Source of the DNA: Hirudinaria manillensis
Lineage: Eukaryota; Annelida; Clitellata; Hirudinida; Hirudinidae
Reading direction: 5' to 3'
Assembly (NCBI GenBank): GCA_034509925.1
Contig: CM067531.1
Coordinates: forward strand, 4,682,001-4,746,000
Length of the DNA: 64,000 bases
Shown here one piece after another: positions 683 to 3,600 of the stretch; position 1 is the stretch's first letter; every line of letters begins with the position of its first letter. The position numbers and the translations under genes are program-made. The notes under the pieces were generated by a model, which saw only the letters and a program-made list of their open reading frames with translations, ran no database searches and was not told the origin of the DNA.

Positions 683-3600
683 ATGGGGAACAAGTTGGGG
701 AGTCAAGTCTCTGATGCCGTCAAGCAGCAGGCGGCAGGGGGTGCCGGTCAAACTCCGATCTATCAGTACACGGATGTCAATGGCGGAGGAGAACTCATCG
801 AACTGATGAAAAAGGTAATTGGAAATTTTAGATTTAAAATCGTCGTCGTTCAATGCTCGAGGTCCTAAGTCTGCCTCTAAGGCTTCCAAGACGAAGGACT
901 ACAGGGAGGTTGACGAGAGGGTCAGAACTTGCTTCCTGCCCTACTTGTACAATGGCGGGGAAGGAGAAATCATCCACATCTCGGAAATCGTTCAGCTCAG
1001 GGAAGGATGGAAGAAAAGTGAATTCGATAAGAAAATGATGACCAATGTTTTCAACTTGGAATCGATGACCGAAGAAATATCGAGGAGAGGTTTATGGCAA
1101 TTTCTTTTTTCTTTAATGAATTTTAATAATAATAATAGTAAATATTTAAAATACGAGTATAATAATAAATGTTTAAAGTATGTAATATAGTGAATGCGAT
1201 AGGAAATATGAATATTTCCTTTTTCATATTGTTGGATCCCTAGATCCAATAAATTGAAGAATAATTAAAATTATATTGCCGATTAATTAATTTAATAATT
1301 AATTAAATTTAGTGGCAATATAATTTGAGAATTAATTAATTGGTGCTATTCAGACTCTTTGGTTATGTACCTTGACAAATGGATTTATCTCGGAAAGTAG
1401 AGCGAGAGTTAGAGAACAGCAGATTTCAAGACTTAGACATTTGAGCATTGTACATCTTCCAAGCCATCTGACAACTTTCAATAAACCTGACCTTCTATAA
1501 TTAGTTTGAGGACCCCGGGTTATTACATTGGTGTCAGGAGTTGGATTTAGAGTTAAAGGGTGTCCAAAAGTAACTAAGGTAGAAGCTTGTTTAATTGAAA
1601 AGTGAAGGATGCCGAAGTACTTGGATGAATTGTACGTGCCTCGATTGAGACAAGAATTGAGAGATCGTGGCCTGGATTGGAAAGGCACGAAAGCTGAGAT
1701 ACGAGAGCGACTTGGGACATGGCTGACAGAGAATGGCCATGACCCAGAGGAATACGAATTCGAGAATCCATCCCATAAAAAAATGGATGAATTTCTTGAT
1801 TTTATGAAAAAGTCCGTAGATGAGTTGAGGAGGAGTATTAGGGGCGATTTGAAAAACACAGCGATTCCATGTCAGGATGTCTCGCTGGTTTCGGGTGAAA
1901 ACTCTACCGAGAAGAGTCCTGTTGGTTCTTTTGAATTCGAGTCCGAATATAGTAAGTTTCGGAGAAAGTTTGTAGAGAAGTCTAGGAGGATTATTAGGGG
2001 CGATTTGGAAAACACAGCGGTTCCATGTCAGGATGTCTCGTTGGCTTCGGGTGAAGACTCTGCCGAGAAGAGTCCTGTTGGTTCTTTTGAGGAGAGCAAA
2101 GTGGTGCTTCCATCTTGCGAAGAACAAGGAGAGGAACTCTGCAAGGTTACCAACGAAGAACAAATCATGTCCGTTGTTCCAGGTACCGTTTCTGGCAGCA
2201 TTGGGATGGAGTCATTAGAAGGCACATCCAACCACAGTGCGTGCGTGTCTCCAGAAACTCTGTGCTTGATGGCAGACTTAGAGAACTCGACGTTGGAGCC
2301 CATAGAGTTACCAAATCAGGTCGAGTCGTCAGCAGGGCCCAGAGAGCTCACGGACGTTTTAGTGGAGCAAGTGGGACTTTCGGAGGAGCCTGTGGGATTG
2401 CCGGTGGATCATGTGGAGTTGTTGGTGCAGCCCGAGGAGTTACTGATGAGTCACGTGGAGTTGCCGGTGGAGCGCACGGATTTGATGGTGGAACAAGTAG
2501 AGTCTACAGAACAGCCCATGGATTTACCAGCGGATGTTTCGGCTCCATTGGAAATAACAGAAGGGAGTGCTCGGGATTTCAGGAGAGTGCCTAGCATGGA
2601 AAGTGAAGCAGGTGATCCTGAGGAGAGTCTGGGATCTGGCGACATCGTGGAGCAGGAGGGTGTGCATAGAAATGGCGATGTTCCGCGGCTGAAACTTGCG
2701 GGACGCAGAAATAAAAGGGACGAGACAGAAATCCCAGAAGATGACAAAGCAAATGGATCTGGGATTTGCAGCCATGAGATTGTTGGAAGATCGGATCCTA
2801 TTCCTAGAGTAAAAATGAAAATGGGAATAGATGTCTGTTCGGGACGAACAGATTTAAGGAGGGGGCAGTGTTGGATCCCTAGATCCAATAAATTGAAGAA
2901 TAATTAAAATTATATTGCCGATTAATTAATTTAATAATTAATTAAATGTAGTGGCAATATAATTTGAGAATTAATTAATTGGTGCTATTCAAACTCTTTG
3001 GTTATGTACCTTGACAAATGGATTTATCTCGGAAAGTAGAGCGAGAGTTAGAGAACAGCAGACTTCAAGACTTAGACATTTGAGCATTGTACATCTTCCA
3101 AGCCATCTGACAACTTTCAATAAACCTGACCTTCTATAATTAGTTTGAGGACCCCGGGTTATTACAATATTAAGAGGTTTGTTCTCAAACTGTCCTTTTA
3201 TTACGAAGCATTTTATTTCGAGAACTTTATAAACTTTGACTTAAATCTCTTAAATCACTTTATATGCTTACATTATAAGCTTACTACACTTTTGAAACTT
3301 TGCACCAATAAAATAAAATAACAGAGAAACGTGTCAACAGGACATCAATACAAAGAGGTTTGTTGGAGGTTAGACAAAAGAGGAAGTCTTGGAGAGACGC
3401 CGCTCCATGTTTGCTTCTTGAAGGGAACTTCAATCCATGCCGACCTTGCCAAACGACTCCTCAACATTTTTCCAAGACTCGTCAAAGACATTTACCTTCT
3501 CAACGAATTCTACGGTTGGTTTGCTTTCAAGTACCAATTTTGTTTTGTTTTGTGATGACGTAATATCTGTTGGGTATCACGTTGTTCACGTTGATTGCAA

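What the first reader, a model, noticed from the sequence alone, without database searches (positions are those of the whole stretch)
1226..3170. Recent gag-only LTR element whose sole product is a SAP-domain protein
Both LTRs, the target duplication, primer site and polypurine tract are intact and the LTRs differ at only three of 298 bases. The interior is a single 432-codon frame with no pol. This is a self-contained non-autonomous element with an intact coding frame, unlike typical non-coding TRIM or LARD elements. The SAP protein may package or target the RNA while a partner supplies enzymes.
Basis: partly seen in the sequence, partly recalled or inferred. Interest (0 to 1): 0.75.

Follow-up and report, generated by a model that had tools for sequence, protein, structure and literature searches.

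The report
Parasitic retroelement encoding Gag's SAP domain
This is one copy of a large family of short jumping elements that lack enzymes of their own and probably borrow those of a longer relative, yet carry a single open gene whose only recognisable part, a small SAP domain, appears to be kept by natural selection.

Summary
Window 1226-3170 is a complete non-autonomous LTR retrotransposon: 298-bp LTRs (3 differences), ATAT target duplication, tRNA-Leu primer site, polypurine tract, one 432-codon SAP frame. Its family is large and recent: 340 LTR-primer junctions within one mismatch; 26 of the 30 best-scored copies lack LTR substitutions. A probable helper shares the genome: a Gypsy family (114 junctions) with SAP, zinc knuckle, protease, RT and integrase, similar LTRs, the same primer site, 55% identity over 73 N-terminal residues and an identical 31-nt pol end/polypurine stretch. 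RT hits follow 28 of 40 helper-type junctions but 1 of 97 SAP-type ones (a hybrid). Two divergent subfamilies still end in the helper's last six pol codons, so the family descends from an internally deleted helper. "Gag-only" overstates it: only Gag's N-terminus remains. In an ORF-blind sample of 28 junctions, 15 frames are open, 2 open without the usual start, 8 broken, 2 truncated, 1 unreadable. Only the SAP segment shows clear amino-acid constraint (omega 0.21, p=0.0002); the acidic, probably disordered rest evolves near-neutrally in sequence. Most likely a coding retro-parasite whose SAP protein acts on shared RNA or particles. New variant of the TR-GAG kind.

The parts
1226..1229 (.). target-site duplication ATAT, left
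1230..1527 (+). 5' LTR, 298 bp, TGTTGGATCCCT...CCCCGGGTTATTACA
1268..1326 (.). AT-rich imperfect inverted repeat inside the 5' LTR (29-nt arms, 83% complementary); second copy at 2907-2965 (79%)
1529..1548 (+). primer-binding site complementary to tRNA-Leu(CAG) 3' end plus CCA, one mismatch
1528..1608 (+). leader between 5' LTR and start codon, 81 nt (contains the primer site)
1609..2907 (+). the single ORF, 432 codons plus stop; ends inside the 3' LTR
1609..1761 (+). codons 1-51, SAP module homologous to the N-terminus of the helper's Gag (Pfam SAP at residues 7-35); the only part with clear purifying selection
1774..2013 (+). residues 56-135, holding two predicted helices of low confidence (56-83 and 107-135), overlapping the duplicated segment
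1789..2090 (+). direct repeat of 146 nt, spacing 156 nt, 86% identical (1789-1934 and 1945-2090); the second copy is absent in the shorter subfamilies and the segment is repeated further in L069
1762..2826 (+). residues 52-406: acidic, mostly very low-confidence (probably disordered) part; near-neutral amino-acid evolution, acidity retained in deep comparisons
2835..2865 (+). 31 nt identical to the pol C-terminus/stop/polypurine stretch of the autonomous Gypsy (which reads it as VRDEQI-stop); the window ORF reads it in another frame
2856..2868 (+). polypurine tract AAGGAGGGGGCAG
2869..3166 (+). 3' LTR, 298 bp, 3 differences from the 5' LTR
3167..3170 (.). target-site duplication ATAT, right

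Best explanation
A young, high-copy, non-autonomous Ty3/Gypsy derivative mobilised in trans by a SAP-Gag-Pol Gypsy family of the same genome. Shown by sequence: it keeps what replication needs in cis (LTR termini, tRNA-Leu primer site, polypurine tract) and a version of the helper's first ~50-70 Gag residues, and has lost the rest of Gag (capsid by position, and the zinc knuckle), protease, RT and integrase; two divergent subfamilies still end in the helper's last six pol codons and stop, so the ancestor joined gag start to pol end, with an acidic segment of unknown origin between. Shown by statistics: the SAP segment is under purifying selection, and divergent subfamilies are represented by open frames although neutral substitution would be expected to bring in stops. 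Inferred: the LTR transcript is translated into a SAP plus helical plus acidic-tail protein that meets the helper's Gag or the shared RNA/DNA through the same N-terminal module (co-assembly, RNA recruitment or chromatin contact) and so helps this element's RNA into helper particles; reverse transcription and integration are then done by the helper's enzymes. My confidence: about 0.95 for a helper-dependent non-autonomous family, about 0.6 for a selected SAP protein, about 0.3 for the particular role in particle or RNA recruitment.
For: 340 SAP-type and 114 helper-type LTR-primer junctions within 1 mismatch, reversed controls 0. On contigs C1-C4, an RT hit lies on the same strand within 1.8-3.6 kb downstream (found at 2.5-3.1 kb) of 28 of 40 exact helper-type junctions and of 1 of 97 exact SAP-type junctions. 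The helper copy read in two unjoined pieces (L046, L049) has LTRs identical over 224 bp and ATAC on both sides. Shared with the helper: first 12 nt of the LTR, GACCCCGGGTTA near its end, LTR similarity overall (score 43 against -3.6+-5.9 for shuffles, 0 of 500) and without the ends (0 of 500), primer site, 40 of 73 identical residues at the Gag N-terminus (E 1e-17), 31 of 31 nt at the pol end/polypurine tract. Helper domains: SAP, zf-CCHC, aspartyl protease, integrase C-terminal domain, RVT_1. Recency: 30 of 30 best-scored copies (window copy included) have matching 4-bp duplications and 26 of 30 have no LTR substitution, two of these with gaps. Selection: SAP omega 0.21 (p=0.0002, main clade, 14 distinct sequences) and 0.46 (p=0.004, all 16). 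Open frame: chance of no stop under neutral substitution 0.0005 for L009-L061, 0 of 4000 for L009-L042 and for L042-L061. Acidity: net charge kept beyond a neutral model in six of six deep comparisons (P 0.0000-0.012; three lineages only, not independent).
Against: Residues 52-309 and 310-406 show no significant constraint by tree-based maximum likelihood (omega 0.82-0.83, p 0.056-0.16; 0.94-0.99, p 0.8-0.97). Of 32 pairwise ML tests (8 pairs, 4 regions) only 3 fall below p 0.05, and SAP in the deepest pairs is not significant (omega 0.61, 0.75, 1.42); simple counting had suggested stronger constraint. The omega and no-stop tests used copies chosen for being intact; the indels are in threes by construction (protein alignment), and at the very end of the frame the main clade has in fact shifted frame relative to L042 and L061. 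Three shallower pairs gave no acidity signal (P 0.19-0.67). 8 of 25 assessable copies in the ORF-blind sample are broken, 2 more have lost the usual start, and some broken copies have near-identical LTRs (L054 and, outside the sample, L044: 0 differences; L063: 2 plus gaps), so a copy without an open frame may have moved recently: the protein may be shared between copies or be dispensable. The leader after the primer site shows no significant similarity to the helper's (65 of 500 shuffles as good), so a shared packaging signal there is not shown. No expression, protein or mobilisation data.
Confidence: 0.8

Rival explanations
1. An ordinary internal-deletion derivative whose open frame is a passive left-over: it spreads only because it has the cis signals, and the protein does nothing.
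For: Residues 310-406 omega 0.94-0.99 and residues 52-309 omega 0.82-0.83, not significantly below 1; 8 of 25 assessable copies broken, including L054 with identical LTRs; many open copies are simply very young.
Against: SAP omega 0.21, p=0.0002; open frames in subfamilies that differ at 212-292 nucleotides, with a neutral chance of no stop of 0.0005 or less (intact copies were chosen); acidity retained beyond neutral models in the deep comparisons.
Confidence: 0.25
2. The frame is kept open for the RNA, not for the protein: translation up to the 3' LTR keeps the 3' untranslated part short and so spares the transcript from nonsense-mediated decay, or couples translation to packaging; the SAP codons double as cis signal.
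For: The ORF runs from 81 nt after the 5' LTR into the 3' LTR; most of it is free in sequence but open in the copies compared.
Against: In the SAP segment synonymous change per site exceeds replacement change in 13 of 13 pairs counted and omega is 0.21, the opposite of what an RNA signal predicts; tail acidity is kept. Copies with early stops and identical LTRs exist (L044, L054).
Confidence: 0.2
3. The SAP protein is a restraint on, or competitor of, the helper's Gag (a dominant-negative-like truncated Gag), so the family is a brake on the helper and not just a passenger.
For: It carries only the N-terminal module of Gag with predicted helices and none of the rest; SAP-type junctions outnumber helper-type about 3 to 1.
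Against: No data on interaction or effect; helper copies with long open frames are still numerous.
Confidence: 0.12

Closest known systems
[quoted passage not shown] Chaparro et al. 2015, known here only as a cited reference; Arabidopsis AT5TE33540 in PMC8704663, passages read)
   Same: Two LTRs, a single ORF, no pol, a related full-length element in the genome, recent movement.
   Different: TR-GAG is described as encoding the GAG protein (562 aa in AT5TE33540, a COPIA family); here only the SAP N-terminus of a Gypsy Gag is left and the rest is replaced by an acidic tail.
Copia families with a single gag-related ORF in the brown alga Ectocarpus (PMC12477816, passage read)
   Different: Copia, not Gypsy; no SAP domain mentioned in the passage.
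TRIM and LARD elements (sizes from PMC6696364, passages read; that they are non-coding is recalled)
   Same: Non-autonomous, LTRs, primer site and polypurine tract; size within the range given there for TRIM.
   Different: Those are non-coding; this family has an ORF with a selected SAP segment.
Autonomous SAP-Gag Gypsy family of the same genome (L045-L049)
   Same: LTR ends, primer site, SAP module, pol-end/polypurine stretch.
   Different: The partner has the rest of Gag with a zinc knuckle, protease, RT and integrase, and a 224-bp LTR.
Cellular SAP proteins (PDB 1zrj E1B-55kDa-associated protein 5; 2kvu MKL1)
   Same: SAP domain by sequence, E 1.2e-4 and 9.1e-4.
   Different: Similarity is confined to about 35-40 residues; the closest relative found here is the helper's Gag.

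Membership tests
Non-autonomous LTR retrotransposon (general) | two LTRs, TSD, primer site, polypurine tract | tested here: met
Non-autonomous LTR retrotransposon (general) | no reverse transcriptase or integrase of its own | tested here: met
   in the window ORF SAP is the only Pfam family over its cut-off; RT hit behind 1 of 97 SAP-type junctions, from a capped RT list
Non-autonomous LTR retrotransposon (general) | a potential helper in the genome with matching ends | tested here: met
TR-GAG | single ORF between LTRs | tested here: met
   copies
TR-GAG | the ORF encodes a GAG domain | tested here: not met
   no Gag or zf-CCHC match in the window ORF (E up to 10) or in L042 and L061 (E up to 0.1); similarity to the helper's Gag stops after about 73 residues
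TRIM | short and non-coding (non-coding: recalled) | tested here: not met
   1937 bp, but with an ORF that is partly constrained
LARD | longer than 4 kb, non-coding interior (non-coding: recalled) | tested here: not met
   total length 1937 bp
BARE-2 type | gag start lost but pol kept (definition recalled) | tested here: not met
   start kept, pol absent
Autonomous Ty3/Gypsy | protease-RT-RNase H-integrase | tested here: not met
Functional helper-parasite pair | the helper's proteins mobilise this RNA | not testable with these tools
   inferred from shared ends and recency only

The most novel reading that the evidence does not exclude
A retrotransposon satellite that encodes its own hijacking protein: by keeping only the SAP/helical N-terminus of its helper's Gag on an acidic tail, the element makes a trans-acting factor that gives SAP-type RNA an advantage in helper particles (or restrains the helper), comparable in logic to satellites that code for a capture factor and not for a capsid.
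Probability: 0.3. Interest if true: 0.75.

Novelty: new variant of a known kind. Interest (0 to 1): 0.52.

Why it matters
Non-autonomous LTR elements are usually treated as non-coding passengers or as full-gag carriers. This family lies between: by junction counts it outnumbers its helper about three to one, keeps selection on one 50-residue domain of Gag, and lets the rest of its protein drift in sequence. It would allow a direct test of whether a retro-parasite needs, or gains from, a protein of its own, and of what the N-terminal SAP domain of this Gypsy Gag is for. Four literature searches (listings only) showed no paper on a SAP domain in an LTR-retrotransposon Gag; the library holds only open-licence papers.

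Tried and rejected
Counting dN/dS by Nei-Gojobori gave omega about 0.55-0.63 for the whole frame in deep pairs; maximum likelihood with transition bias and codon frequencies removed most of that outside the SAP segment, so the weaker claim is reported. 'Indels all in threes' was considered as evidence and dropped: one search counts them on a protein alignment of intact frames, and the main clade has a frame shift at its 3' end relative to L042 and L061. The 18-nt tRNA pattern CGAATCCCACTCCTGACA found nothing; the AAAT form hit a tRNA-Leu(CAG) array as well as the elements' own primer sites. ARAGORN found no tRNA in the window. The first LTR-primer pattern with 3 mismatches (472 places) also admits helper-type junctions, which differ at 3 positions, so the 1-mismatch count of 340 is used. 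AlphaFold with 16 family members gave mean pLDDT 42.1; only residues about 10-50 are confident, so no fold search was run. The origin of the acidic tail was not found: Pfam shows nothing above cut-off there, and no search with the tail alone was made. The similarity of L042's ORF to the helper's integrase end is only the last six residues, not significant by BLAST alone (E 0.41) and supported instead by the 31-nt identity. The composite at C3 (L045, L048, L067) was checked as a possible autonomous element with SAP-type LTRs: it has a SAP-type 5' LTR preceded by only about 118 bp of SAP interior (108 bp of it in L067) and a helper-type 3' LTR, so it is a hybrid. L066 was excluded because its interior reads N. 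Organism identity was not determined.

Full report
Observation. The element at window 1226-3170 is real and complete. The LTRs (1230-1527, 2869-3166) are 298 bp and differ at 3 positions; ATAT flanks both ends. One ORF of 432 codons (1609-2907) has a SAP domain at residues 7-35 over Pfam's cut-off. The ORF passes through the polypurine tract and stops inside the 3' LTR. The primer site at 1529-1548 pairs with the 3' end of tRNA-Leu(CAG) plus CCA with one mismatch; tRNA genes of this kind were read and identified by ARAGORN (sequence).

A family, and a recent one. The window lies at C6:4682001-4746000 of an unnamed 148.4-Mb genome. The pattern that spans LTR end and primer site occurs 340 times with at most one mismatch, reversed control 0. 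For the 30 best-scored rows of the protein search (L009-L038, the window copy being L009; only 97 of 913 candidates were scored), 30 of 30 have matching 4-bp duplications and 26 of 30 have no substitution between their LTRs (two of these 26 have small gaps); the window copy with 3 differences is among the four that do differ. These 30 were chosen by score, so they lean to intact copies.

ORF-blind sample. To avoid that bias I took the exact-match junctions on contig C1 in genome order, 28 in all: 25 read as DNA and 3 judged from rows only. Exact-match junctions still lean to young copies. Fifteen have the frame open from the usual SAP start to the 3' end; 2 (a tandem pair sharing one LTR, L068) are open but have lost the usual start; 8 are broken (L040, L041, L051, L054, L058, L059, L062, L063); 2 are truncated soon after the primer site (L052, L053); 1 reads N (L066). 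Outside this sample, L042 and L043 are open and L044 is broken although its LTRs are identical. Open frames of the sample range from 345 to about 495 codons, by in-frame repeats and deletions.

The helper. A second pattern, the LTR end and primer site of a Gypsy family, occurs 114 times with at most one mismatch, reversed control 0. On contigs C1-C4, RT hits lie within 1.8-3.6 kb downstream on the same strand (observed 2.5-3.1 kb) for 28 of 40 such junctions and for 1 of 97 SAP-type junctions (both junction lists are exact matches, and one search scored 150 of 1478 candidates, so both numbers are lower bounds). One helper copy read in two pieces has identical 224-bp LTRs and ATAC on both sides. 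Its Gag starts with a SAP domain, followed by short repeats (only weak, below-cut-off coiled-coil-like Pfam matches), a further Gag region and a CCHC knuckle; aspartyl protease and integrase C-terminal domain follow. Copies with open frames of about 1650-1750 codons around RT are listed; L047, upstream of one of them, is open from the SAP start to the end of the stretch fetched.

Kinship of the two. Shared are the first 12 nt of the LTR, GACCCCGGGTTA near the LTR end, significant similarity over the rest of the LTR (0 of 500 shuffles as good), the primer site, 40 of 73 identical residues at the protein N-terminus (E 1e-17), and 31 of 31 nt at the pol end and polypurine tract. The leader after the primer site is not significantly similar (65 of 500 shuffles as good). 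In the helper the 31 nt encode VRDEQI and the pol stop. The divergent SAP subfamilies L042 (with L072) and L061 end in the same six residues and stop; the main clade, the window included, has shifted frame there and reads on into the LTR. So the family most likely began as gag start joined to pol end. One locus on C3 has a SAP-type 5' LTR and a helper-type 3' LTR around a helper interior: the two LTR types recombine, which is consistent with shared replication but could also be chromosomal exchange.

Selection. Tree-based maximum likelihood on intact copies: residues 1-51 omega 0.21 in the main clade (14 distinct sequences, p 0.0002) and 0.46 in all (16, p 0.004); residues 52-309 omega 0.83 and 0.82 (p 0.16, 0.056); residues 310-406 omega 0.99 and 0.94 (p 0.97, 0.8). 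Of 32 pairwise tests 3 are below 0.05. Synonymous divergence between L009 and L042 falls from 0.87 (SAP) to 0.43 to 0.15 along the frame, a sign of mosaic ancestry. The copies compared are all open: under neutral substitution the chance of no stop is 0.0005 (L009-L061) and 0 of 4000 (L009-L042 and L042-L061), but 0.01-0.27 in six shallower pairs, and intact copies were chosen. Net charge of residues 52-406 lies between -25 and -36 in three lineages where a neutral model with the same base composition drifts to about -4 to -16 (P 0.0000-0.012 in six comparisons; for D+E content P 0.0000-0.037); three shallow comparisons show nothing (P 0.19-0.67). AlphaFold gives a confident SAP fold (about residues 10-50), two long helices with low confidence and no structure after residue 135.

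Reading. The sequence shows a family that keeps the cis signals and one Gag module and must depend on enzymes from elsewhere; the SAP-Gag Gypsy is the evident candidate. The statistics indicate a selected SAP segment and an acidic, otherwise free tail. That the protein works in trans on the helper's Gag, on the shared RNA or on chromatin is inference. The existence of copies with broken frames and identical LTRs fits a protein shared between copies, but fits a dispensable protein as well.

Known relatives. TR-GAG elements are the closest kind (passages in PMC8704663; PMC6696364; PMC12477816; the original paper was not held). This family meets the single-ORF and no-pol criteria but not the GAG-domain one. 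Rho et al. [quoted passage not shown] I do not claim that this genome is Daphnia. Searches for a SAP domain in retrotransposon Gag (listings only) gave nothing that looked relevant, and a search for TR-GAG with insects (listing only) gave two plant papers.

Noticed in passing
genome G000:C1:5585511-5629423 (unit read as L081): Tandem array with a period of about 585 bp, about 76 listed repeats, each holding the tRNA-Leu 3' end; the 801 bases read hold two tRNA-Leu(CAG) genes and, on the other strand, one tRNA-Thr(AGT). The tRNA-Leu is the apparent primer of both element types.
   Followed up: partly
L045 and L048 (C3:10941200-10948300), L067: Hybrid: helper Gypsy interior with a SAP-type 5' LTR and a helper-type 3' LTR, preceded by the last ~118 bp of a SAP interior.
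   Followed up: partly
L068 (C1:9071400-9075300): Two SAP elements in tandem sharing the middle LTR, both with the usual start codon lost but the frame otherwise open.
   Followed up: no
window 1268-1326 and 2907-2965: AT-rich imperfect inverted repeat (29-nt arms, 79-83% complementary) inside each LTR; the helper LTR has a shorter AT-rich stretch at about the same place.
   Followed up: no
L052 and L053 (C1): LTR plus primer site with similarity to the element ending about 30-70 bp further on (a short LTR-end fragment follows in L052), and no second full LTR in the stretch fetched.
   Followed up: no
L009 against L042: Synonymous divergence drops from 0.87 at the SAP end to 0.15 at the 3' end of the frame, suggesting recombination between subfamilies.
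   Followed up: no
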